Part shown: positions 3,419-27,200 of the stretch, piece after piece | How positions within the stretch are numbered: position 1 is the stretch's first letter | Layout: each line of letters begins with the position of its first letter | Assembly (NCBI RefSeq): GCF_000003605.2 | Contig: NW_003120435.1 | Location: forward strand, 18,189-49,764 | Direction: 5' to 3' | From: Saccoglossus kowalevskii | Lineage: Eukaryota > Hemichordata > Enteropneusta > Harrimaniidae | DNA: 31,576 bases | Notes under the pieces: generated by a model | Seen by the model: only the letters and a program-made list of their open reading frames with translations | The model's database searches: none | What the model was told of the DNA's origin: nothing | Position numbers and translations under genes: made by a program

Positions 3419-5850
3419 TCAGTCACTGGAAGGATGTATTTTGTTATCATTAATTACACAAGGGCCATAGTAATTATTGAAAAATAATGATAGTTTGCAC
3501 ATCATGTCATGCCAAAAAGAGTGTTGAAAGAATTATATTTGAAGCCCTGAGTCCCTTGTGTGTGTATACAATAAAATCACACCATTTGGCATCAGTTATG
3601 TTTATTTGACCCTGAACTTGGTAAAAATACCTATGTAACCATTTTAGTTTTGGTTTATTACCAATATTCTCACAACAGAACTTTGGATCAAAACATGCAT
3701 CCAAAGGAGTGATGTTTTTCTTTGTTTCTGGACATTTGACCTCACAAATTCCAAATGCAGGCTGTACACCTTTGTCGATGACCTTTCCATCAGGGGTGGC
3801 AGCAAGGTGGCTAACAACTGATTCACACTTAAAAACTGATATATATATCTTAATTGAGACTATGCATTTGTAAGCTCTATTTTCAAATGTGTGTCCATGT
3901 TCTGTATATGTAGACTTGAAAAAAAATGGCTTATACAATCTCTGTATCAAAATTATGTTGACGATTACAAATATCATAAAATGTAGATGCAGTTAACCTT
4001 GGTTTGTGGTGCTTCCACCACTCACTGCAATCTGCTTGTTGTCGTGTATTAGCCTCTATGTTTGAGGCAGTTGGCTCATCAACTTCAAGGGATAAGAGCA
4101 ATTGTTTTAAGTCATTAGAAGAGTTCATCGAAATATTTGATAAAGGAAATTTTAAAAAATTTAAAGGAGTGAACGTGTAAGCATGAATTCTTGCAAGAGT
4201 ATCAACTGATGTGTCTGCAGAAAAATTTGCCTCGGTAAAAGCAAGTTGATAACTTACAACTGAGCCTCGTGGCATTTCCCCAACTCTAGTATCACACATA
4301 TCAGTATTATCACCTAAAGGTGTTACCAAAGTAGCACCACCCATTTTTGGATTTGGATTTCTCTCTGTACATTTGGATTTAAGTGTAATCTCATTGTTGA
4401 CATGTATGATATCACCCTTTACTGCTTTGTACAATGGACTGAATTATCACTGCAGTTACTACCAACCTTTAACTTTTTCACATATACTTCCATAGACGGC
4501 TGAAGATCAATACCATCAGTTCTTCGTCTGTTCCATCTTTGCAGCTTAGATGTTATTGGTAAATCATAAGAATAATTATTTGAATCATCAGTGGTGTTCT
4601 TAAAATTATACAAAGAATATTCACATATACGACACATAAGACCAATCAAATGATTACAATGACCTGATTTACCAGCTACACATGTACCATGTACCACTTC
4701 CCCTGTAATTAAATGTAAACAAAGAGTAATTGATGTGGCTTCTTGGATTTACTATAACTAGGACTACACTTAGTTTTAAACAAAAAATGAAGTCCAGAAA
4801 CAATATCAAATAAATATTTGTCGTGATTGAAAATGTTCCCACGCTGAAAAGCTGTTGGTTCTGCTTGGTCTTTTTTTTCTTTATGCAAGGTCTTACCCCC
4901 AGTGGCAACTTTTACATCCATCTGTGCACAAGAGAAAAGGGGTAGGTTTTCAAGAGATGTACCCCATCCAGTCTGAGGGTAAGAAACTGCAGCAGTCGTT
5001 GAGGTTGAGGTTGATCAGTTTGTCCAATTTTCTGCTTAGTGTACACATTATTTAGGTCTTGATCCACAATCTTTTTGTCAAATTTATTTACCATGAAGTG
5101 AATTACCCTGTTAAAAAATCAAACAATTCAATTGTTTAATGCTTTGTTTCTTGAAACAGGTAAAGAAATACATTAAATTTAAAAAATGAATTTTGTCCTA
5201 AAGACAACTTATGGTTTACTGGATATATTATATTTAATGGATAATGAAATAATAGTACAGATGTGTGTAATACGAATATTTAGCAAAGGTAATGCAGGTA
5301 ATAACATCACATTCTACAAATTACAAATATTTCCAGAACTTACCGAGCAACAAGCTCTGTTTTGGTCGGTCCCCACGACACAGCAACCAAAACCTCAATT
5401 CATCGTTGCAAAGCCTTGCAGGGTTCCTACCATTCAATGACGCACCTGGAATATCATTTTCAGGTCCAAGGCCATATTTGTTGCTAGGTCTACAAGCATA
5501 AAATAAAATTTTATACACAACCTTTTCTGAATTTTAAATTGAAGCTCTGAAAAAATTAACTATATTATTCTCATTTACACATTTTTGAAAAAATGATATG
5601 TCCGTCAGTACATCACGTCCATACATCATACGTGAACGTTCATCTCGTATACTTTTGCCAACTTGCGCCACCGGGCGTCACTTCACGGAAACAATGCTTG
5701 ATAATAAGTTGTAATTGCACACACTCAGTAAAACAAATACATAAGCAAAACGAAATAAATCAATTTCTTACCATTAAAACATCAGTCTTGAAGCTGTCAA
5801 TGTTTACATTTAGAAAATCCCGGGCAACCCTGGTTGCTAAACTCACTAGC
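3419..5850 (-). pseudogene. SWIM zinc-finger + YqaJ (lambda-exonuclease-fold) nuclease relic
   Basis: Read from high to low coordinates. A short exon ends at donor 5772 (...SFKTDVLM). The exon 5483-5344 reads NKYGLGPENDIPGAS then NDELRFWLLCRGD, a SAP-like segment usual at the N terminus of these proteins. An exon beginning near 5108 runs on to a SWIM-like finger, HGTCVAGKSGHCNHLIGLM, in which the first Cys of the C-x-C pair is absent. The YqaJ domain follows: PRLTAS, then ATPDG (Asp near 3790), EVKCP (Glu near 3743, Lys near 3737) and YQVQGQ near 3615, the D...E-x-K nuclease signature. Frameshifts near 4712, 4425, 3930 and 3520 each require a change of frame to recover the next conserved block. 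YqaJ nucleases accompany THAP transposases in ISL2EU-type elements, which fits the convergent neighbour. The role of the nuclease in transposition is unknown to me. Non-functional here. Confidence 0.8.
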
Positions 5851-11330: not shown

Positions 11331-12868
11331 AGCCTTCATAAAAACATTTCCTAGAATCATTTTCATTCTTCCTTGCTATCATTCCAGGTACAACCTAGAA
11401 AATGGCGCTATTGCTATGGGCAAACAAAGCTCCACCCTCTGAATTACTCGAGCAATGTACCAAACATGAGTAGTAATTATGCCAATACAAATGCAATAAT
11501 GAGAAGACGGGTAATATTAGGTCACTGGTGTTGTGTGAGATTAGTTCTGGTTACTCCAACAACTAACATGCAAATAGCCGTCCACCCACACTCAACCCCG
11601 TGGGAAGGGAACATCATAATATTGACCTATTTACCTAAATAAATTAGTGAGTTACTTGACTTACTCTTCTATATATTGAAACCCGAACCAATGAAATGTA
11701 AGTACTGGATCATCTCAATGCGAAATGTTTCTGACCAGAATTTTTTTTTGTATAAAGTCAAACTTAGTACACTGTTGAACAATATCAATTCTTAAGCTAA
11801 AGCGGCATACTTCCATGTCCTTGAGTGGTGTCGATTTCGAATGTCACTCAAATGCAAACCATTTAGTTTTATTGTATGAAAAGTTAATTGTATTCCAGTT
11901 TTTTTTTCTTTTGTGACGACAATTATAAAATAGGAAATTGTTTTTTAATAATTATCAATAAATATGGTAATTAGCCCAATGTATAAAATAGACCTGGAAA
12001 TAGTTTTGTAGGCAGTTTATTTTTAACTGCACACGACCGAGTATTGGGAATTTTTGAGCAATTCAGGTAAGAATACATTTTACTACTACTTTATAACAAA
12101 TACTCCTCGAACTGTCACATATGTGGCGTTAATAAATTATATTTTATTACGCAGCATTGAAAATGTTTAAAAGATGAAATGAAGTTAGTCACTATCAAAA
12201 CAATACGTTCTGGTAAAATTCAATAGCATGTAGTGTGTTTTTTTTTAAGATCGCTGTTCTCTCTAATCTGACATTGAGTTGTATATCTGTGTGTCTCTCG
12301 TTTAACATGTTTGAAGCGTTACCATTGTGATCATAATAATAATTAATATCAATATGCCCTATTGTGATTAATGTAGTGCTAGTGTTTTATTCAATGGTAG
12401 CATTGTAATATGCATGCACACAATCGTGCTAGTGTAGAGTGAAAGCACGCATTTATGGCAATGTAATACGAGTAAACTCATAACAACACACATATCACAC
12501 TATATAATACGTTGAATTAGAAATATTATTGATTTATATTATCAGTGTTCGAATGTTCAGTAATTAAGTGTTGGGAACTGCATAATGGTATTAGTTATGA
12601 TACTAACCCAAACGATAGAATGTGCATCGGAAATGTATGCGATCTGGAATATTACTCATAAGTAACAAACATATAGTGCTATAGTTTCTATCCATAAACG
12701 TGGTTGGTTTTACAGATGAATTTTATGTATATATTTATGCAATATTATTATCACCAGTTGATGAATATTCATGAGGCTCTAGGTCTTAACCAACCATATT
12801 TGTCATGACCTTGCTATGTAAACTCATTCTGTAATGTTCACTCACTTATGTCATGTTGTTTTATAGCC
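11331..12868. other. Noncoding upstream region of the Frizzled-CRD gene
   Basis: AT-rich with no convincing coding frame. The sequence just before the Frizzled-CRD start, TGTTGTTTTATAG|CCATGAC (12854-12872), looks like a splice acceptor. A 5' UTR exon and the promoter may therefore lie in this stretch. Confidence 0.4.
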
Positions 12869-13390
12869 ATGACTGCAATCAGAGTTTTATTGCCCATCTT
12901 CGTGGTATGCATCTTTTACGGTGTGTTCATTGCTGGGAAAAAATGTGAGCGAGTCAGATTGGCAATGTGCCAGGATATGCCATACAGACGCACCCAACTT
13001 CCGAACAGATTCAACCAGTCCAACCAAGATGAAATCAGTTTGGAAATGCGTCAGTTTTGGCCGCTAGTCGAAATTGAGTGTTCACCTTACTTGAGTCAAT
13101 TTCTGTGTTCATTGTATTTACCACCATGCAGAACTGCACTTCCTTGTCGATCACTGTGCGAGTCAACCCGACGAGGATGCGCTCCAGTCATGGCTGGGTT
13201 TGGATTTCAATGGCCGGAGAACTTTGATTGTCAATATTTTCCAGAAGATGATGCAGACTGTATAGCCCCGGCGATTGAAGACGTGACTGTACTACCAACA
13301 CCAGCAACAAAGACAGAGACGACACTCAGTATTGAAGAATCCGGTGAAGGACGAAATTTGCAATGTCAGTGTCAATGTGTTGAGCACTAA
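12869..13390 (+). CDS. Secreted Frizzled cysteine-rich-domain protein (sFRP-like)
   Basis: 173 aa from ATG 12869. An in-frame ATG seven codons earlier (12848) lies in what looks like the polypyrimidine tract of a splice acceptor, so I prefer the later one. Residues 1-22 (MTAIRVLLPIFVVCIFYGVF) form a signal peptide. A complete Frizzled CRD follows with all ten cysteines: KCERV, MCQDMPYRRTQLPN, IECSPYLSQFLCSLYLPPC, LPCRSLCE, RRGCAPVMAGFGFQWPE, FDCQYFP and DADC. Frizzled CRDs bind Wnt lipid. No transmembrane segment follows. After a Thr/Ser/Glu linker the frame ends with QCQCQCVEH, recalling the C-x-C start of the netrin-like domain of sFRPs, but no such domain was found downstream. It is therefore either a CRD-only secreted Wnt modulator or the first coding exon of a longer sFRP. 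This looks like a functional host gene. Confidence 0.85.
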   Translation: MTAIRVLLPIFVVCIFYGVFIAGKKCERVRLAMCQDMPYRRTQLPNRFNQSNQDEISLEMRQFWPLVEIECSPYLSQFLCSLYLPPCRTALPCRSLCESTRRGCAPVMAGFGFQWPENFDCQYFPEDDADCIAPAIEDVTVLPTPATKTETTLSIEESGEGRNLQCQCQCVEH

Positions 13391-15488: not shown

Positions 15489-15497
15489 AGAATCATA
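15489..15497 (+). repeat. Left target-site duplication, AGAATCATA
   Basis: The 9-bp sequence ends directly where the left terminal inverted repeat begins and is repeated exactly at 26402-26410 directly after the right terminus. Confidence 0.95.
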
Positions 15498-15602
15498 TAG
15501 TCTCGCTTGCCAGACCTCTGGTCTGACTGAGTTTTACGAAAGGGCGCCTCTCGCGGCGAAGCCGCGAAAGCGAGGTCGTCAGACCGAGGTCTGGCTGGAA
15601 GC
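15498..15602 (+). repeat. Left terminal inverted repeat (105 bp)
   Basis: Exact reverse complement of 26297-26401. It is much more GC-rich than the host DNA. Internally it is nearly self-complementary: CCAGACCTCTGGTCTGAC near the outer end pairs with GTCAGACCGAGGTCTGG near the inner end. At the centre TCGCGGC-GAA-GCCGCGA (15551-15567) forms a short hairpin. Each terminus could therefore extrude as a cruciform. Confidence 0.96.
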
Positions 15603-15810
15603 GGCTCCCGCATTCCAAAACAAAAATAGCAACCAATAGAATGGTACTATTCCCGTCTTCTTCGTACTCAAGACCTAATGAATATTTAATGAGAAGGCGG
15701 CGATAATTATAAATAACTGCCAATGAGACTTCGATTACTGCTGTCAATTTTTAAACGAACAGCTGTCCCGCCATTTTCAATTTGCTTCTGCTAGAAAAAA
15801 AAATGTCAAC
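15603..15810 (+). promoter_or_regulatory. Leader between left TIR and helicase start
   Basis: 208 bp between the TIR and the helicase ATG. It contains CCCGCCATTTTCAA near 15767, a YY1-type motif in reverse, and an A-run just before the start codon context AACATGGCC. It presumably carries the helicase promoter; no TATA box at a convincing distance was recognised. Confidence 0.35.
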
Positions 15811-18323
15811 ATGGCCGACGAGAAACTTGCTGCAGCCGAGAAAATAGAGTATTCTATTGCTTGTGGTATGAAAGAACTATCATTAGCTCAGCTGAAACAA
15901 AGGCAACGTGAAGCATTGAGTGCTTTCCTTAGTGGCCATGACGTAATGGTAAATCTGCCTACAGGATACGGGAAGTCTGCAGTTTATCAACTCGCACCAT
16001 TCTGCTATGATATTTTCCATAACCGTACCAAATCAGTAGCTCTTGTCATCTCACCTTTAGTCGCATTGATGAAAGACCAAGTGCAGGTTTTATATGGAAA
16101 AAATATTGAGGCGGTATATTTGTCAGAGGTTGGCGTTTCCGGGTTAAGAGATCGACTTAAAAATGGAAATTTGAGGGTCGTCTTTGCTAGTCCCGAATCC
16201 GTCCTGGAAAATCAATCTGTTAGAGAACTTTTTCAGAATAGATGTTACAGAGAGTTGATATGTGATGTATTCATTGATGAAGCACACTGTGTAGCTAAGT
16301 GGTAAGTATTTATTGGTACTGTAAAATACTTTATTTTCACTGAAAAAAGTTTTCAGGCATTTTGTCTGGATCTAATAGCGAAAATAAAATTCCAGTAAAA
16401 ATAAAGTATTCCTGGGTATTCAGTGTATTTTTTGCCTAACTGGCCTGAGTTAAATAACACATGTAGACCTAATATAAAGGGGTATTAACTAAGTACATGT
16501 ATATCGTTATCATGCGATGAAGCATATAATCCTAGAAAAGTATACTAGTATACAGTAAACAACATTTGGACTGTATTATTTTGACATGTTGCGTTATTAC
16601 ACAAGAAAATGTGTAATAGTGCAGCAGCTGCAGAAATGTTTTTTTTTTTTTTATTATTTCATTTTTATTTTGTGTGTGAATCTTATTTGCTGCGTTGTAT
16701 ACAATAATTGATACCATGGAGGTAAAAACGTTTTGGACTGTATTATTAAAAATCTGGTTTTACCTCCATGTTGATACCAAGTAAAAAATATTCTTGTCAC
16801 AAACCAAATAAATTTGGATATACAAATGTACTAGTACTTTTCTGAGGACACCATATGCCCAACAAGCAAAATAAAATTTAACATTTATGTCAGTATAATT
16901 TCTAGTCTTTAAAATTCAGCACCTAATAAAAGTTGTGTAAGATATAGTATATTTTATAATTTTAGGGGTTTAGGTGACAAGAAAGTTTTCAGAATATGGT
17001 ATGGCAGACTATCTGAGCTGAGGTCATTACTACCAAAAGACATTCATATGGTTGCTCTAACAGCTACTGCTACAAGTTCTATACAGAAAATAATTATTGA
17101 ATAAACCAACATGATGGATTGCATTATAGTAGCAGAGTCTCCAGACAGGCCTAATATCAAATATAGTGTAATAAAAGTTGAAAATGATTTAACAAAGAAT
17201 TTCACATGGTTGATTGAAGACCTGTTAGCTAATGGTATAAACACTGACAGAGTAATAATATTTTGCAGATCTCTAAAGTACTGTCGCTTGCTCTATCTTT
17301 TATTCCGAAAACAACTTGGAAACAATGGCTATGATTATTCACATGGTGAATCATATAATGATGACAGAAATCGTCTTCATGCTATGTTTCATTCACAAAC
17401 ACCCGATATAGTAAAAGAAAGTGTTTTGGATTCTTTTAGAAAGGAAGATGGTCATGTCAGAGTAGTGTTTGCCAGTATTGCATTTGGCATGGGGATAGAT
17501 GTCAAAGGTGTGTATACAGTCATCAATTATGGTCCATCTAATGACATTGATGATTACTTTCAGGAAAGTGGTAGATGTGGTAGGGATGGCAAACAAAGCT
17601 ATAGTTTGTTATTAGTTTATAAGCAATCCATGTCAAAGCGTGTCAGTAAAGAAATGAAATTGTATGTATCTACAACAAAGTGCAGGCGAGAAACCTTGCT
17701 ATCCCATTTTCCTGGGCAGCCATCTCCTTTTAGTGGAGCATTGCATAATTGCTGTGATATATGTACTATGAAATGTAATTGTTTTCTTTGTTCTGCTGAA
17801 CAATATCTAGTCCATGCATCATGTAAGGCAGAAATTGAAATACATGAACAATACAAAAAAGATATCGAGAAAAGTAAGAAAGAAACTGAGACTATAACTA
17901 AACCATACAAACAAGAATTGCACTGTGAGTTACTACGGTTACGTAGCAAACGTTTAGATGAAGCCCATGATGCAGATGGAAATTTAAATCCATTGTACAG
18001 TGGTGCTGATTTAACTAGTGGTATTTCATTGCCAATGATAAATAATATTGTTAAAAGTGACCATGATATAATTAATTTATCTAGTTTGGTTGACAAATTT
18101 GGTATACATGACAAAGAAGAAGCAAATGAGATTTGGTCATGCATACAAAATGTCAGAGAGGCCAGCAACTCAGGTTTTGTTGTTATTCATGGTTATAGAG
18201 TCTAGTAACAGTGATTTCGAGAATAGCTCAGATATATATACGTCAAGTGATTCATCAGATAGTGATGTAGAATCCAGAATTAGACAGAAAGTTCATCTTC
18301 CAATTTTATCTGATGACGACTAG
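15811..18323 (+). CDS. RecQ-like SF2 DNA helicase of the transposon, interrupted by one stop codon
   Basis: Exon 1 (15811-16301) starts MADEKLAAAEKIEYSIACGM and has motif 0 (LKQRQREAL), Walker A LPTGYGKS (residues 49-56), SPLVALMKDQV and the DEAHC box (157-161). The donor GTAAGT at 16302 and acceptor TTTTAG at 16965 join within a Trp codon, as in the RecQ 'DEAHC..WG' region. Exon 2 continues to LTATAT (motif III), then an in-frame TAA at 17102-17104. The same frame carries on with SPDRPNIKYS, IIFCRS, VVFASIAFGMGIDVKG, QESGRCGRDG (arginine-finger motif VI) and a RecQ zinc module, CRRETLLSHF then CCDIC. No RQC winged-helix or HRDC domain is recognised. The main frame ends at 18205. A neighbouring frame continues as an acidic Ser/Asp-rich tail to 18323, suggesting a second, small frameshift near 18170. 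RecQ enzymes unwind DNA 3'-5'; a role in transposition is inferred. A functional product is unlikely unless the stop is a sequence error. Confidence 0.88.
16302..16965 (+). other. Helicase intron with two small inverted repeats
   Basis: 664-bp GT-AG intron. AATACTTTATTTTCACT (from 16328) has an inverted counterpart, AGTAAAAATAAAGTATT (from 16394). CATGGAGGTAAAA (from 16717) pairs with TTTTACCTCCATG (from 16759). TTGGACTGTATTATT occurs twice in direct orientation (16566 and 16733). These look like decayed MITE ends. Confidence 0.55.
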
Positions 18324-19815
18324 AAGCAGTATTAGGTGCAAATGAATTTGTGTTTAGTCTTGCCAGGGATAAACTTTGTGGTTCTTTTATGCAAGTCAGT
18401 GCTATGGTATAGCATGATTGCCAATGTGTAAATTTGAGTGTTTTGGAAAGATTGAATGTAAAGATCCTCTCATAATTTTACCAAATTGGCAACATATTGT
18501 TTTGTGTATGAAATCATAAATTCTTGTCAATATATTTGCCTAATTATTGCCACAAGAGACTGACATAAAGTTTGTTACTGCACTTTGCAAAATATGGAAA
18601 AAAAATGTCATTTATTTATACTGCAAGAACAAAGCATTGATTTTGCCAATATATCCAACTTTTGAAAACAGTATTGTATTAACCATTTCACTGCCACTAT
18701 TTTTGTTCAGAAATTCTTGAATTTTCTTTATTTTCTTAGAGTCCTATTTACTTTGGATGAAAACAATGCAGGATAGTTTAGTCTTAATCAGAATTTGAGA
18801 AATTAGTAGATTTATAACAAATCTATTTGTGGGAAGTGACAAAGGTGGTGAAAGGATTAAGCACTTCTAATAGAAGAAATATGGTTCACAGACTATTCTA
18901 TGTATATTCTTATTTCAATTTTGTGGACATTCATGCAAGGTAAATAATGTACCAGGGTTGCAGTAAAATTATGAAAGTGTCTGATTTATAGGTGTGTAAA
19001 CACTAAAATTACCATTTCAGTATTTCTTAATTATTCCTTGTCACATAGACTAGGTTAATTCAAATGCTGTAAAACATATATGTAGTTCTTATAGGAGAGA
19101 CATGGGGGAAGGAGGCGGGTCTGGCTGCTTTTCTTGCATTGTCTGAGTTGATCAAGTGAAAAATGTCGCCAGCCAGCTACTTTTTTTCTGAAATAGCATA
19201 TACATCTCCCTGTGTGTTTTGTTTGTATTGTAAATAAATCTAGAGTGCTGTGAAAATAAAACAGACTTTAATAAATAATCATGAGTTTATTGTACATCTT
19301 TCTTTTATTGTCACATTTCACACAGTACATGTTACCATGGGTCATCCATTCATATGTGATTATAAAATGTCAATATGTACAGAACATAAAAAAAGTGATT
19401 TCTTTCCAAATAAGGCTTCAGTTTACCTGCCATAACCCACCTTATATCTACATGTGTTATCAGTGCACATTTGCCAATGCTAATTGATACCCAGTGGGGC
19501 TAATACAATTTGCTGATTTGAACAATTATTCTTGTTTCCCAAACACCTTTCCTTAAAATACCATACAACTAAATTTGAAAGAAAATGTACTGAATTCACA
19601 AATATGGTATACACTGAAAATTACTTGTACATGTATCTGTCTCCCTGTGGGTATTAAATGTTTTTCAAAACAGAGTGCTAACATTGTGTATGGTTAATAA
19701 TACTTGCTTGTGATGTGTGATGATATTAAAGTCCCCCTTCCTCCTAATTACAGTGCAGCAAAATTAATTTTTATACAGTTTTTATACAATACAAAATTTG
19801 ATTCAATAAAGTAAA
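18324..19815. other. Convergent 3' regions of the two transposon genes
   Basis: No coding potential beyond short spurious frames. AATAAA on + (about 19231 and 19255) and TTTATT (AATAAA on -, about 19285) lie within about 60 bp of each other. The helicase and transposase transcripts may therefore terminate in overlapping positions. Confidence 0.45.
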
Positions 19816-22800
19816 CTAGGCAAACGAGTACATGTCTTCAAAATGACTCAAGTGTTTGGATATCCATTTTCTCACCTTTGTAACATCCTGGTATCTAAAT
19901 GGATCTCTATCAAAATCTGGATAGGCACAGTGAAAACGACCAGGTATAAACTCAAATACTTTTCCATTATTATTTAAGTGATCCAGAATAATGTTAAGAT
20001 CTTTATCAGTTGATGTTGTCGTATGCTTATACCCAGGTCTAATAACAGCGATTTGACTATCTAAATTCTTTAGAATTTGTTCATTTGAGTGCACTGCTCT
20101 ACTGACTCTATTTACAGCGCGTTCAGTTAATTTACCACCAAATGACTTAGCATCTTCCTTGAAGTACTTGTTTTGATGCTCTAAATGTAAATCTAACGGA
20201 ATGTTATTACCAGCTCCACCTTTCACATTTACAAATCTCTCCCATTTCAAAAGGTGTGCTTCTTTGGGAGGCAGAATAGCAGCAATCTGCACTAATAAAT
20301 ACAATGATTCCAATGCATATTTATGTCTACCATCAGCTTTATAATGTAACATCAAAAACTTGTACAATCTGATTACTCTCTCCCCATCCCCTTCTTTAAT
20401 GGCATCTTGAAAATTTCTTACCAATAAACCCATACTAATACTGACACAGGCATAGTTAAAAATACCATCTTGGTTTTCATATTCTGGTGACTGCCTTGGA
20501 AGTTCACCGATAAAATTATGACCATGCTTAAGTTTCTCATGTCTTTTGAGATAACCTGCTACCTTGTACAGTTTGCCACAATATCTACATGTAAGGGAAC
20601 TAGTAGCTTCATCTGAACCAACCACTGGCAGCTGATCCATTATAAACATGTCTACAAAATTGCCTAATACCTCAAACAAATAATTTGGGTTAGAGCTACT
20701 GTGCATTTTATTTTCATCAAAATTTGAAGTTGGTTTGCCATCTATGGAATCCATAGAAAAATAATGCATCAATGCACTGATGATATGGGCTTCTGTGTAA
20801 ATGTGTCAAAAAAGTCTTTGGATGCGTTGAAGTCAGAACCTGGATCAATACAGACATTTCTTCTGTTAACTGCATTTCTAAGCTGGTTCATAGTTCCAAT
20901 ATCAAAAGAGGACTGAGTTGAATAAAGTTTGTGCCAACACACCTGTTGAAATGCAACACATGGTAAAGAATTATAACACATTTGTACTGTACCGTGATTG
21001 GTCAAAAACATGTCACATGATGTTTATGATGTCACATGATGTCACATGATGTCTCTACTGCTCTGGCTAGNNNNNNNNNNNNNNNNNNNNNNNNNNNNNN
21101 NNNNNNNNNNNNNNNNNNNNNNNNNNNNNNNNNNNNNNNNNNNNNNNNNNNNNNNNNNNNNNNNNNNNNNNNNNNNNNNNNNNNNNNNNNNNNNNNNNNN
21201 NNNNNNNNNNNNNNNNNNNNNNNNNNNNNNNNNNNNNNNNNNNNNNNNNNNNNNNNNNNNNNNNNNNNNNNNNNNNNNNNNNNNNNNNNNNNNNNNNNNN
21301 NNNNNNNNNNNNNNNNNNNNNNNNNNNNNNNNNNNNNNNNNNNNNNNNNNNNNNNNNNNNNNNNNNNNNNNNNNNNNNNNNNNNNNNNNNNNNNNNNNNN
21401 NNNNNNNNNNNNNNNNNNNNNNNNNNNNNNNNNNNNNNNNNNNNNNNNNNNNNNNNNNNNNNNNNNNNNNNNNNNNNNNNNNNNNNNNNNNNNNNNNNNN
21501 NNNNNNNNNNNNNNNNNNNNNNNNNNNNNNAATCCCACTAACCTGTTGTTAACCTATTGTTTTTAATATTCAGTATACCGAACACCTCACTATAACAAAC
21601 TTTTATCATGTTCTCCAATGACTTCTTTGTAGGCAAGGACGCAATCAGGTTTGCCAAAAAATGTTTTGCAAAAAAATATGTACATCGCCAGCCCACAGGT
21701 AACATCACCACAACCATAACTACATGTACTGAATATGCATAAATAAACATCTTTTATATGAAAACACTAAAGTTAGCATATTTGTGTTAAAATATGCTTC
21801 ATACTACAGTAAAACCTGTCTATACCAAACCATGTCTAAACCTGAAAACATTATAAACTGAACAGTTTTAGAATTCCCTTCTTAATAGACATGCTCGTTT
21901 AAAAAAATAATATAAACCGAGCACTTCTGTAAACTGGTGTTCGGTTTAGACATGTTTCACTGTATATTGTACATTTTAGTAAATGGAAAATTTTCCCCAG
22001 TAAGGGAAGTTGAACACTTTCTTTCTAGTAAAACTGGTATACTCTGCATGTGTACTATTTTACAAAATAAGTCTATTAAAAATGTATACATACTCTGTAA
22101 AATGCAACAAGTGCATGCCAATCTGCCAATTTGGGATAAATTCCTTCCAGTCGCTGAGTAGGTGTCCTTCCATCACACACAGAGTCCAGAGATTCTCTTA
22201 ATCGTTCAACAGTAAGCTGACCCCCAACAAATGGCACTTTACACAATGGTGCTTTGTCATCTTCCAATGTATCAGTATGACCTTTGGAGAGATAATACAT
22301 ATAATTTATTTCTGTAAATATTTACCATAACAGTTTACAGTGTTGAAAATACAAAACTGTTTTCTGATTTTTCTAAAATACTGCTAAATTCAAATATAAA
22401 CAAAAATTATATTTATTTGAATATACAAGTGAACATGGTATATGAAACAAAACAAAAAAAACATCCATTCCATCACAATTCAAAATTGAGTTGAGTTCGG
22501 GTAACCCCCCCCCCCCAAATAAAATGCACCACTATTAACTTGTAGCATGTTCATGGGAAACTGTCAATGAACAAATATCATTCTAACACTACAGTGAATA
22601 ATTTGAACAAACTTATTTATTATTATTACAGTGTCATCAATGTATTACCTGGGACAAACTGGTGAGCATATTTTGCAATTTCTATCATTTCTTCAGTGTA
22701 CTGTTCGTTTTTCTGTAGAACACCTAACATAACCTAACAGAAGATAAATAAGACAATATTTAATGAACTGAATAAATGCATATTATCATGTTATGCTACC

Positions 22801-25800
22801 AACTTTTGTCTTTAATATTAAATAAAATTAAAACTGGCATACAAGAAATTTATTGTAGAGCCCCATCTCCACCCTCACCCCCACAAAAAAAATTTAGTGA
22901 GACTTGACAAGACAGAGCCATGAAGTACTTGCACATTTGGTTCAAAGACCATTGTTTAAGTCTAAGCTATAAAAATAATTTTGACATTAGGAAGTGTAAA
23001 AATCAGTCCTACTTTCATTAGCTGTGCCCACTTCATAAATTAAATAAAAAGCCCAATAAGATATAATTTTAATCAGATTGTCTATGTACCATGTCTCAAC
23101 AAAATGACTATGAACACATCATGACTGAATTTAAAATGGCCGCCAGTCAGCCATATTTGGTTGATTGAAAAAAATCACTTTGTCTTTGTACCAAGTCTGG
23201 GGCTAGAAGGGATACCAACCAATTATTTTTTTATTTGCCCTAACTTTTATGGTTAATAATTCTGTTTTATTAGACACTGAATTTCACTGTGCCTACATAT
23301 ATTGTAGCAATTAAATTTACAGCACTGTAAATACATACATACGTAAAAATGGTTGTGATAATCAGCAGAGTGCTTAATCACAAAGTTCCATTAGCTATTT
23401 TGGCTAATGAATTCAGAAAAAATATTAGCTACATTGAATTTTAATTTGCTAATCTGGTCAATTTACAGGGCTACCAGGAATGCATACTTACATATTCAGA
23501 CGGTATCTTGGCTTCATTTTGGTACTTGTGTGGAATATGCTCTGGAAATGTTTGTTTCTGGTCCTTAAATACACCAAATCTGCTGGTCAAAACTCTACCA
23601 ACAAGGAAAATAAATTCTTCTTTCAGTGCCAGATTATCTTGTATTGTTGGGAGTATTTCCGTAATGGGAACATCTTGCAATTTATGTTGGAATGAAAAAT
23701 CTTCGCTATCTGGCATAATCCTGTTTTTCACAGCCATTAGCTGGAACATATGATAGTCACGATTTTGATGATCAACAGTCATATGTCTCACCTTTTCCCT
23801 CATATCTACATTATCACCAACAATCTGAAAACCTACTGCTGGGCTATCAACTAAATCTTGTAATTTCTGTTGGCTGGATATTTTCTGTTGTCTGATATGT
23901 TGCCCTGGACTTGAACATGTGACACAAGGTATATGTGAGTCCATATTTTCTTCAAATTCTTCTAAAAGAGTAACTGAATGATGGGTTTCTTTCTTGACTT
24001 TGGCTGAAATTTTCATTTTTAATGCGAGCAGAGTGTCTTGTTTTGCAGGAAGATTAGTAGTAAAACTACCAGTACTAGGCTGTGAAACAGTGGTATTGAT
24101 AGATGTTGGTTTTTGTGTGCAATTACTTGAGGCATCAGAACTGCTAACCGAGACTTCTTTTACAAGCATCTCCAGTGCAGCAATGTCACGTACCAATTTA
24201 TTCTTTTTTTCGACATCATCTTCAATACATTCTTTCCAACCCTTAACTTTCTGGTCAAAATCCACTCCAAGTTTCTTTTGAATACTTTTGACAGTTGTTT
24301 CCGATATACAAACATTTAGTTTGTTTAGTCTATGAAAAGCCTGTAACAAAAAATCAAGTTATTTAATTAATTAATATAGTAGACATTATATACAGTCAAA
24401 CCTGTGTTAGTGACCACCTCTGTATAAAGACCACATGTCTAATGTGACCACCTTTCAACAATTTTTTTTGCTGATTTGGCTTTGTTTAGAAATAACATTT
24501 CACATTCCTATTTTCAATTTTCACAAGCAAAATTTACCTCATTTTTATTTTGGTGACTCGTGCAAACATGTCTTTGTTGCAGTCGTACTATCTCATTATG
24601 TTTTTGAAAATATTGTGTCAAATGTACAAGTTGCACATTCATAATAGGAACAAACCAACCTCCATATAAAGAACATTGTCTATAAAGGACGTCTTGATGA
24701 AGTCCCTTGGGCCTGGGTGGTCACTATACACAGGTTTGACTGTATTGTTATGCTCAATTAATTTTGCCATTTACCACTAGCCTACAGTAATTTTGACATA
24801 CATTTACTAGTTCCTTTGAATTTTTTATATTACACCATTTATTTTTATAACTAATTTCACTTACCATTCTCCCTGCATGAGCACGCTGTAGTACAAGGCC
24901 AATAATTGTTTGTAGTGCTGTCATGTCTTTATTTCTTTGCTTCAGCAACACTGCAGCTGCCATACAAACTCCTGGAATACAATCAGATTCAGCTTTGTTC
25001 TTTGACCTGGATGCTTGTTTTAGAAAACTTGTGAATACTGGTGCTCTGTCCTGTAGTTCACCATAAGCCTCACTAAAACTGAACACCTCTAAATCATTCT
25101 TCTCTGTTCTTCTGAAAACACATTTCTCTCTTATAGTACATAAATTCTGGCACTCCTTAGCAACCTTCTTCATGATCCTATCACAGACAACTTCTGAAAA
25201 TCTTTCACTGCTCATCATAATATCAGCTAGTTTCTGTATAGTTGAGGTATCAGTCGTTGACAGCACTCTTTTTAGTTTAGTAAGTTCTTTCTCAGATAGC
25301 ACAGAATCATTGTCTACAGTCTAAAATTAATTTCAGAAAAAATAATTGTTTACATTTATGAACAAAAATATGGACCAAATGTTCAAGTTCAACTATTTTT
25401 TTTCTATGTGTGTTTTAATGAACTGTTTAGGCCATCCAAAATGAATTAGTTGGTTAGCATCCTCATTACCAACTCATTAGAACATGCATACTAAGATAGA
25501 AATAGAATCAATTCTGCATTGTTAGACAGAGCTTAAAAAAAATCAGTGGCATTTTTTGGGGGGCGGACGGGGATGCTAATCAACTAAGTTTTATAGGGAA
25601 TATGGGATAACTGACTGAAGTGTGCAGTGCTTTTCAACAGCATCTACGGTATGTATGTTAGTTATTGGATTGAAATAAAATAATTGTTCAGTGCTTGACA
25701 ATCCGATAATTTGAACAGAATACACAGCATCTGAATACGTGTTTATAATTTATTTTGATAATAAATCTGACGAATCGTTTACATTGTATTTTGAATACAC

Positions 25801-26147
25801 TGACACACTGCTAGCTCAGCTGTCAATGGAAACATCTTACATCCCGGTTTTGCATATTATCACTATAATATTAAGAAAATAATATAGGGTCTACATACCA
25901 ATAACTCGAACTCCTTTGGTGCAGGTACATCATTTACTACATTAAATGCAGCGGCAGAGGTTGAATAGTCGAGATACGGTAACTCGCAGTGCACATCGTC
26001 GTGAATTGGCGCCGAGTTCAAACGACATTCTTCCGAAGGAAATTGAAGTCTTTTTACACTAGAGAATCGCGAATGAATGGGAGAAACGCATCCTCTCTTA
26101 GTGCGATCTCCACCGCTGTAAATCTTCACTGGTGTGCGAACTTGCAT
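19816..26147 (-). CDS. DUF6589-like putative transposase, six exons, frameshifted in the last
   Basis: Exons on -: 26147-25899 (MQVRTPVKIYSGG...), 25320-24865, 24340-23492, 22733-22649, 22281-22094 and 20942-19816. All have GT-AG borders and agreeing phases (0,0,0,1,0), giving about 984 aa. Exon 3 holds VGFQIVGDNVDMREKVRHMT and HQNRDYHMFQ, the start of the conserved region I know as DUF6589. Exons 4-5 give MIEIAKYAHQFVPG, VPFVGGQLTVERLRES and KLADWHALVAFYR. The last exon gives VCWHKLY, RNAVNRRN and, after a one-base shift near 20795-20815, TEAHIISALMHYFSMDSIDG. A C2H2 finger follows, then a Trp/His-rich C terminus. GGQLT lacks an acid where I would expect G-D-Q-L-T, possibly a lost catalytic Asp. 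Exon 1 starts 149 bp from the right TIR. The protein is the only candidate for the DNA-cutting enzyme of the element. Role inferred; gene structure strong. Confidence 0.85.
20524..20589 (-). other. C2H2 zinc finger inside the transposase-like protein
   Basis: CRYCGKLYKVAGYLKRHEKLKH fits C-x2-C-x12-H-x4-H with the usual aromatic and Leu spacing. It lies in the C-terminal third of the DUF6589-like protein, between the TEAHIISALMHYF block and the final conserved segment. It may contribute DNA binding. Confidence 0.8.
21010..21053. repeat. Short tandem repeat GATGTCACAT next to the assembly gap
   Basis: Three to four imperfect copies of GATGTCACAT end about 18 bases before the run of N. They lie in the intron between transposase exons 5 and 6 and may have caused the assembly break. 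Confidence 0.75.
21071..21530. other. Assembly gap (460 N)
   Basis: 460 unresolved bases inside the last transposase intron. Flanking exons are in phase without it, so no coding sequence needs to be missing, but the stated length of the element depends on the gap estimate. Confidence 0.99.
21807..21962. mobile_element. 156-bp MITE with TA target, in a transposase intron
   Basis: Left end CAGTAAAACCTGTCTATACC and right end (reverse complement) CAGTGAAACATGTCTAAACC form imperfect inverted repeats, flanked by TA on both sides. The CAGT.AAACCTGTCTATA ends are typical of pogo/Tc1-mariner-type MITEs. No coding capacity. Confidence 0.75.
22282..22648. other. Transposase intron 4 with poly-C run
   Basis: 367-bp intron containing an uninterrupted run of about 13 C near 22507-22519 and otherwise AT-rich sequence. 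No further feature seen. Confidence 0.5.
22734..23491. other. Transposase intron 3 with dispersed-repeat fragment
   Basis: 758-bp intron. Around 23090-23210 it contains TAAAATGGCCGCCAGTCAGC and nearby words. These resemble, in inverted orientation, the repeat at 10800-10840. No coding sequence. Confidence 0.45.
24393..24742. mobile_element. 350-bp pogo/Tc1-type MITE in transposase intron 2
   Basis: The left end CAGTCAAACCTGTGT, followed by TAGTGACCACC, matches the reverse complement of the right end over about 26 bp with a single indel. TA flanks both sides (24391-24392, 24743-24744). It is a second, larger member of the same type of MITE as the one at 21807. Confidence 0.85.
25321..25898. 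other. Transposase intron 1
   Basis: 578-bp GT-AG intron between exons 1 and 2. Contains a G-run (GGGGGGCGGACGGGG near 25558); otherwise AT-rich with nothing recognised. Confidence 0.5.
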
Positions 26148-26296
26148 TTAGAATTAATTTAAGACGACTTTGACCAATATGCATACAGACGACGGACATA
26201 GATCGTTTACCCAGGCTTCTAAAATTCCACAGTGCAAAGGTCACATTAGCATGTTTAGCCACACCTCTTTGAAATGTCATCAAAATGGAATTCATT

Positions 26297-26401
26297 GCTT
26301 CCAGCCAGACCTCGGTCTGACGACCTCGCTTTCGCGGCTTCGCCGCGAGAGGCGCCCTTTCGTAAAACTCAGTCAGACCAGAGGTCTGGCAAGCGAGACT
26401 A
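26297..26401 (-). repeat. Right terminal inverted repeat (105 bp)
   Basis: Matches the reverse complement of 15498-15602 at every one of 105 positions when compared by eye, including the internal self-complementary arms and the GC-rich central hairpin. Confidence 0.96.
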
Positions 26402-26410
26402 AGAATCATA
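26402..26410 (+). repeat. Right target-site duplication, AGAATCATA
   Basis: Exact copy of 15489-15497, directly abutting the right terminus. The bases beyond differ on both sides, fixing the length at nine. Confidence 0.95.
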
Positions 26411-26779
26411 CTGCTACTCCTCTTCCTCAATATTATGATAATTTATTAATTAATAAATGATATTCTAAAACAATATTTAAATCTAGATTATTTCCAACTG
26501 CTTCATACCAGGCGGTGTACATTAGCCAAACGCCCTTTCTCTCTGGTTATTCTTCTCTCTTGAATTTTCTCTGTCAATGAAAAAAAAAAATGTTTTTAAC
26601 GTCAAGCCAATATGCGTCAACGTCATTTGAGTGGTGTACAGTTTGGATCATTAAAACAACGGATTTCAGCGTTTTCATTCCGGCTTTGTACAATTTGCCC
26701 ATTAAAAGTACAGTTGTGAAATAAACCAGTTTTGTGACTCATCATACTACTTGTAACTGTGGATATTTGACGTTCAGCG

Positions 26780-27200
26780 GTACTTTGTTCGACCGAAATG
26801 AGACACGGGAGGACGCGGTTGTGTATGGTGAGCGGCACGGCGACCTCAGTGCCAACATCTGATCTGGGTACATTTTTGGTACAACCAAAGTTTTGTGACA
26901 GTATGCCTGACAAGTTTTGTCGTTGTCCCGGGGAAGTTTGTCGGTGTAAGATCGAATTCTCGCATCGTTTTTGTGACATGTATATGATATGCCTTGTCCT
27001 AACTCCAGCCGAATGAAGGACTTTGCACGCCGGAGTTCTGTACATTGGTTGGTGTACACTCGGCACAAATCTGCAGCTTTCGAAATTAACTTCATCATCT
27101 TCTCTAATTTATGCAGCCCCAGTAGAGAATTACAATACCATATATCGTCGTCGAATTCTGCGTTGTCCAGTGTTTTTGAAACAGATGGAAATTTCACCAG
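26780..27200 (-). CDS. Exon 3 (provisional 3' border) of an unidentified minus-strand gene
   Basis: After acceptor CAAATTCTAG, a frame in phase 0 reads LVKFPSVSKTLDNAEFDDD, then LLGLHKLEKMMKLISKAADL and CRVYTNQCTELRRAKSF. It joins in phase with the exon at 27754-27558. Possible donors are AAA|GTACCG near 26790 and CAA|GTAGTA near 26745; the true 3' border is unknown. A second overlapping frame is open as well but lacks phase support. No domain recognised. Confidence 0.5.

What the first reader, a model, noticed from the sequence alone, without database searches (positions are those of the whole stretch)
15489..26410. Intact-ended 10.9-kb transposon pairing a RecQ-like helicase with a DUF6589-like transposase
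Seen directly: 105-bp perfect terminal inverted repeats, a perfect 9-bp target duplication, and two convergent multi-exon genes. From memory, an Academ lineage carries a helicase; whether that family makes 9-bp duplications and uses a RecQ-type enzyme with this partner I cannot confirm. If this exact combination is not catalogued, it is a new family or lineage. A RecQ-type helicase as a dedicated transposon partner raises the question of a replicative or repair-coupled mechanism.
Basis: partly seen in the sequence, partly recalled or inferred. Interest (0 to 1): 0.88.

Follow-up and report, generated by a model that had tools for sequence, protein, structure and literature searches.

The report
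Helicase-carrying jumping gene in acorn worm
This is a recently inserted but damaged DNA transposon in what is very probably an acorn-worm genome; it carries a RecQ-like helicase beside its transposase, and it fits an already described lineage (AcademH) rather than a new kind of element.

Summary
Perfect 105-bp terminal inverted repeats (15498-15602 / 26297-26401) lie inside a perfect 9-bp duplication, AGAATCATA. Two convergent spliced genes lie between: a 2-exon RecQ-like helicase (+) and a 6-exon DUF6589 protein (-). The copy is intact only at its ends: the helicase has a premature stop, the DUF6589 gene a frameshift, and 460 N sit in an intron.

The host is very probably Saccoglossus kowalevskii (99% protein match). 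Its genome holds an 80-bp mini-element with the same termini and a perfect 9-bp duplication. The convergent DUF6589/RecQ pair recurs at 5 of 7 other DUF6589 loci fetched (10 found). One, on C14, is an 11.8-kb element with different termini and a 9-bp duplication. In its family, 6 of 7 two-ended copies tested have 9-bp duplications with at most one mismatch.

AcademH is described as Academ transposons that encode a helicase and make 9-10 bp duplications (passage of PMC10045372). RecQ is also reported in KolobokH. Verdict: new member of a known kind. Not shown: homology to reference Academ transposases, the DDD/E fold, any function of the helicase.

The parts
15489..15497 (.). left target site duplication AGAATCATA
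   Evidence: identical 9 bp at both flanks
15498..15602 (+). left terminal inverted repeat, 105 bp, begins TAGTCTCGCTTGCCAGACC; can fold back on itself
   Evidence: DNA fold z -5.49
15811..16301 (+). helicase exon 1 (DEAD domain)
   Evidence: spliced model; Pfam DEAD 1e-17
16966..18205 (+). helicase exon 2 (Helicase_C, RecQ_Zn_bind), with a premature TAA at 17102
25899..26147 (-). DUF6589 (presumed transposase) gene exon 1
24865..25320 (-). DUF6589 gene exon 2
   Evidence: no Pfam match of its own
23492..24340 (-). DUF6589 gene exon 3, includes a GDN motif shared with relatives
   Evidence: no Pfam match of its own
22649..22733 (-). DUF6589 gene exon 4
22094..22281 (-). DUF6589 gene exon 5; the Asp of the G-D-x-L-T motif seen in some relatives is Gly here
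19816..20942 (-). DUF6589 gene exon 6 (Pfam DUF6589 3.9e-29, profile positions 203-410; one weak C2H2-like motif), frameshifted near 20788-20807
21071..21530 (.). assembly gap, 460 N, inside intron 5 of the DUF6589 gene
26297..26401 (-). right terminal inverted repeat, 105 bp, 100% identical to the left one
26402..26410 (.). right target site duplication AGAATCATA

Best explanation
It is a 10.9-kb DNA transposon of the AcademH type in an acorn worm, very probably Saccoglossus kowalevskii. The DUF6589 protein is the presumed DDD/E transposase: it would bind the TIRs, cut the element out or join its ends to new DNA, and attack the target with a 9-bp stagger that becomes the duplication after repair. 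The RecQ-like helicase is a standing partner encoded by the element; most likely it opens DNA at transposon ends or at the joined intermediate so that the 9-nt gaps can be filled, but this step is inference. Shown: ends, duplication, gene models, recurrence of the pair, 9-bp duplications in two families. Inferred: catalysis by DUF6589, cut-and-paste, role of the helicase. This copy inserted recently (identical TIRs) but, as assembled, no longer encodes either protein intact.
For: TIR 105/105 and TSD 9/9. Pfam DEAD, Helicase_C, RecQ_Zn_bind and DUF6589. An 80-bp mini-element with the same ends and perfect 9-bp TSD on C201. The convergent DUF6589/RecQ pair at 5 of the 7 other DUF6589 contigs fetched, out of 10 found. 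The C14 element has a perfect 9-bp TSD, the only exact fit among lengths 8-11. Six further two-ended copies of its family were tested: 3 perfect 9-bp TSDs, 2 with one mismatch, 1 without; in those five no fit at 3, 4, 7, 8, 10 or 11 bp. AcademH makes 9 or 10 bp TSDs and encodes a helicase (PMC10045372 passage).
Against: No Academ reference protein was available, so homology of DUF6589 to Academ transposases was not tested. The AlphaFold model of the DUF6589 protein failed (mean pLDDT 34), so no RNase-H/DDE fold was shown. The Pfam match was seen in the last exon only; two other exon pieces scanned gave none. C641 and C1796 showed no helicase in the 15-20 kb fetched; 6,800 of C1796's 20,000 bases are N. 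The remaining 3 of 10 loci, seen only as about 3.4-kb pieces, showed none either. C3357 in the C14 family shows no 9-bp TSD. No TIR/TSD was found at C808, C1561, C3659, C1075, C641 or C1796, some of which are gapped or cut by contig ends.
Confidence: 0.88

Rival explanations
1. A new transposon superfamily that converged on the AcademH layout: DUF6589 transposase plus RecQ helicase with 9-bp duplications, unrelated to Academ transposases.
For: DUF6589 carries no functional name in Pfam. No paper in the held library (open licences only) has both 'DUF6589' and 'transpos'. Homology to Academ was not tested.
Against: Both reported AcademH hallmarks, helicase and 9-10 bp TSD, are met. The lineage is described from animals and fungi (title in reference lists).
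Confidence: 0.07
2. A Kolobok-type element (KolobokH, or the Kolobok-1_CCri layout with RecQ on the complementary strand).
For: Kolobok-1_CCri encodes RecQ on the complementary strand and KolobokH carries RecQ (PMC9587614 passage).
Against: The duplication here is 9 bp and 4 bp does not fit the C14-family copies tested; Kolobok's 4-bp TTAA duplication is recalled, not looked up. KolobokH is reported only from fungi, with RecQ downstream of the transposase domain.
Confidence: 0.02
3. The helicase is passenger cargo, or a captured host gene, and plays no part in transposition.
For: No functional test exists. 2 of 7 other DUF6589 contigs fetched show no helicase, nor do short pieces of the other 3. 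Most helicase matches in the genome are on contigs without a listed DUF6589 match (32 of 38); these were not examined and may include ordinary host RecQ genes.
Against: The pair recurs convergently at 5 of 7 loci, with tblastn identities to the query proteins of roughly 20-48%. The helicases fall with other animal sequences in one branch (100/100) apart from the 8 bacterial, archaeal and plant RecQs sampled (no known animal housekeeping RecQ was put in).
Confidence: 0.15

Closest known systems
AcademH lineage of Academ DNA transposons (Kojima 2020, Mob DNA 11:15)
   Same: Encodes a helicase, makes 9 or 10 bp target duplications (PMC10045372 passage), found in animals and fungi (title). The paper itself is not held.
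   Different: No difference shown. Family-level identity with a Repbase entry could not be tested, nor the helicase type or gene order given in the original paper.
AcademX lineage
   Same: Same superfamily as AcademH in the literature.
   Different: AcademX encodes a nuclease and makes 3 or 4 bp duplications; here a helicase and 9 bp.
KolobokH / Kolobok-1_CCri
   Same: DDD/E transposon with a RecQ helicase, in one case on the complementary strand (PMC9587614 passage).
   Different: Different superfamily. KolobokH only from fungi. Duplication length differs (the Kolobok TTAA is recalled).

Membership tests
AcademH | element encodes a helicase besides the transposase | tested here: met
   DEAD, Helicase_C, RecQ_Zn_bind between the TIRs
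AcademH | 9 or 10 bp target site duplication | tested here: met
   9/9 here, 9/9 for the C201 mini-element, 9 bp with at most one mismatch in 6 of 7 two-ended C14-family copies
AcademH | terminal inverted repeats (recalled as a general feature of the superfamily) | tested here: met
   105 bp perfect; C14 about 190 bp, with one mismatch and a 12-base gap
AcademH | transposase homologous to Academ transposases | not testable with these tools
   no Repbase or Academ reference sequences available; the protein matches Pfam DUF6589
AcademH | DDD/E catalytic triad on an RNase H-like fold | tested here: inconclusive
   structure model failed, mean pLDDT 34. A GDN Asp (P0121-P0123, C3659, C1075, C14), a G-D-x-L-T Asp (P0122, P0123, C1075, C1796) and a Glu (4 aligned proteins, C14) recur, but the motif scan missed one or more of them at every one of the 7 loci, and the middle Asp is Gly in the window and P0121
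AcademX | 3 or 4 bp duplication | tested here: not met
   9 bp
KolobokH | Kolobok transposase and 4-bp TTAA duplication (recalled) | tested here: not met
   9-bp duplication; of the three transposase-gene pieces scanned one matches DUF6589 and two match nothing

The most novel reading that the evidence does not exclude
The RecQ partner is an obligate part of the transposition machinery and sets or permits the long 9-bp stagger, so that the same transposase superfamily makes 9-bp or 3-bp duplications according to whether it pairs with a helicase or a nuclease (a link already suggested in PMC10045372), possibly through a replicative or repair-coupled pathway. DUF6589 would be the so far unnamed Pfam face of this transposase.
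Probability: 0.15. Interest if true: 0.6.

Novelty: new member of a known kind. Interest (0 to 1): 0.32.

Why it matters
It supplies an annotated hemichordate example of a helicase-carrying transposon lineage, with 9-bp duplications seen in two divergent families of one genome. It ties the unnamed Pfam family DUF6589 to transposon ends, which would help re-label 'uncharacterized' animal proteins. The co-inherited RecQ helicase offers a place to test whether accessory enzymes decide duplication length.

Tried and rejected
AlphaFold2 on P0121 with 4 sequences gave mean pLDDT 34 and pTM 0.20, so no fold search was made. Two viral-contig scans for the DUF6589 protein gave no relative. A third protein search with alignment A1 listed only P0121 and P0122. 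The idea that the helicase exists to unwind hairpin-forming TIRs: the window TIR folds well (z -5.49) but the C14 TIR does not (z 0.10), so it is not general. TIR/TSD search at C808, C1561, C3659, C1075, C641 and C1796 found none. C290 holds only 91 bp of the left end; no right end was found in the 20 kb fetched. A count of contigs with both genes gave 6 of 11 DUF6589 contigs against 38 helicase contigs (hypergeometric 7e-11); it ignores contig length and is not relied on. Paper searches gave no further source on AcademH than those.
Full report
Observation. The window contains inverted repeats of 105 bp, 100% identical, at 15498-15602 and 26297-26401. Immediately outside both is AGAATCATA, a 9/9 duplication whose chance by composition is about 8e-6. 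The element is 10,904 bp.

Gene content. On the + strand a 2-exon gene (15811-16301, 16966-18205) encodes a RecQ-like helicase: DEAD 1e-17, Helicase_C 7.6e-17, RecQ_Zn_bind 1.2e-5. Its C-terminal part matches WRN, BLM and RECQ1 chains by sequence, best 1.5e-13. On the - strand a 6-exon gene (26147 down to 19816) with GT-AG introns and compatible phases encodes a DUF6589 protein, Pfam 3.9e-29 in the last exon; two other exon pieces scanned gave no Pfam match. The genes are convergent. Exon limits are my own reading of splice sites, supported for most of exons 2-6 by agreement with the annotated protein P0121.

State of the copy. Helicase exon 2 has a TAA at 17102; the last DUF6589 exon is frameshifted near 20788-20807; a 460-N gap lies in the preceding intron. 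In the motif G-D-x-L-T of relatives P0122, P0123, C1075 and C1796, the Asp is Gly in the window and in P0121. Whether this is a catalytic residue is inferred, not shown. Identical TIRs indicate a recent insertion; as assembled the copy is probably non-autonomous.

Host. The best protein match is 99% identical, 'LOW QUALITY PROTEIN: uncharacterized protein LOC144349697 [Saccoglossus kowalevskii]'. P0121 may be the same locus in another assembly. As I recall, NCBI gives the LOW QUALITY label to models corrected against their genome, so P0121 is not evidence that an intact copy exists, nor an independent witness of the Gly. Other DUF6589 relatives listed: Ptychodera flava 61%, Clytia 37%, one unnamed 35% over 42% of the query (4 hits in all). 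Helicase relatives among the best 120 of 7,999 hits are named from brittle stars, a sea cucumber, corals, a hydrozoan, sponges, amphioxus, bivalves and an acorn worm; the lower rows are mostly bacterial RecQ.

Other copies. In the window's own genome (572 Mb, 4,830 contigs) the TIR matches 4 places: the two own ends, a 91-bp left end on C290, and C201. The C201 match is an 80-bp mini-element with both ends and a perfect 9-bp duplication GCTATCTAC. No other two-ended copy was found, so 2 of 2 two-ended copies of this family have a 9-bp duplication.

Other families in the same genome. P0121 matches 18 places, on the window's contig and 10 others. I fetched 15-20 kb (11.6 kb for the short contig C1075) around 7 of these 10. 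Five (C14, C1075, C1561, C3659, C808) carry a RecQ-like helicase convergent to the DUF6589 gene; C641 and C1796 do not (6,800 of C1796's 20,000 bases are N). About 3.4-kb pieces of the other three showed no helicase. C14 is a complete element, 262794-274593, with a TIR of about 190 bp and a perfect 9-bp duplication CATTCCGCT; its terminus CAATCTGATTAAAATC differs from the window's. No TIR/TSD was recognised at the other six.

Duplication length in the C14 family. A 100-bp TIR query gave 46 matches, 40 of 143 candidates being scored. Of 12 loci held, two are C14's own ends, one (C1465) shows both ends, and nine show one end only within about 1.5 kb. From the match list I fetched five more apparent pairs and the two flanks of C1648, 2.8 kb apart. 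C1517 had no recognisable right end and was dropped before the count. That leaves 7 two-ended copies, C14 included: C14, C1465, C3327 and C1648 have perfect 9-bp duplications, C1211 and C2351 have one mismatch, C3357 has none. For the six besides C14, no length among 3, 4, 7, 8, 10 and 11 gave a match; C14 was tested for 8-11.

Helicase relationships. In a 31-row tree the animal helicases, including all six from this genome, form a branch of 23 (100/100) apart from 8 bacterial, archaeal and plant RecQs; no known animal housekeeping RecQ was put in, two rows were under half filled, Mya and Clytia had long branches, and 8 of 28 inner branches were open. A helicase search of the genome gave 46 matches (71 of 81 candidates scored) on 38 contigs, six of them among the 11 DUF6589 contigs; the other 32 were not examined and may include host RecQ genes.

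Mechanism. Academ is one of the superfamilies described as having a DDD/E transposase (PMC9587614 passage). A 9-nt staggered attack with gap repair explains the duplications. What the helicase does is inference: opening of ends or of the joined intermediate is my best guess. A special role at hairpin TIRs is not general.

Comparison. PMC10045372 (passages read) states that AcademH generates 9 or 10 bp TSDs, AcademX 3 or 4 bp, and that the difference seems related to the helicase and nuclease they encode. PMC10799480 (passages read) names AcademH, KolobokH and Helitron as sources of helicase domains such as DEAD and Helicase_C. PMC9587614 (passages read) reports RecQ in KolobokH and Kolobok-1_CCri. 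Kojima 2020 itself is not held; I know it through its citations and from recall. Repbase listed 105 S. kowalevskii families in 2015 (PMC4455052 passage); whether this one is among them is untested. A text search for DUF6589 with 'transpos' returned 0 papers in the held library.

Verdict.

Noticed in passing
window 12809-13390 (+): Single open frame with a Frizzled cysteine-rich domain (Fz, 4.1e-30), about 2 kb from the left end of the element.
   Followed up: partly
window 3507-3992 (-): ORF with weak YqaJ-like viral recombinase similarity (6.7e-4, below Pfam's cut-off), perhaps part of another mobile element.
   Followed up: partly
window 15498-15602: The TIR is itself nearly self-complementary (DNA fold z -5.49, 0 of 200 shuffles as good), unlike the C14 TIR.
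   Followed up: yes
window 26623-27200 (-): Two overlapping open frames of about 150-160 aa just right of the element; the one scanned (26742-27200) has no Pfam match.
   Followed up: partly
L031/L032 (G000 C14:262794-274593): A second complete helicase-DUF6589 element with short internally deleted copies (46 TIR matches).
   Followed up: partly
G000 C352:243788-244267 and 245824-245933: A helicase match about 1.6 kb from a C14-family terminus, perhaps a decayed copy of that family.
   Followed up: no
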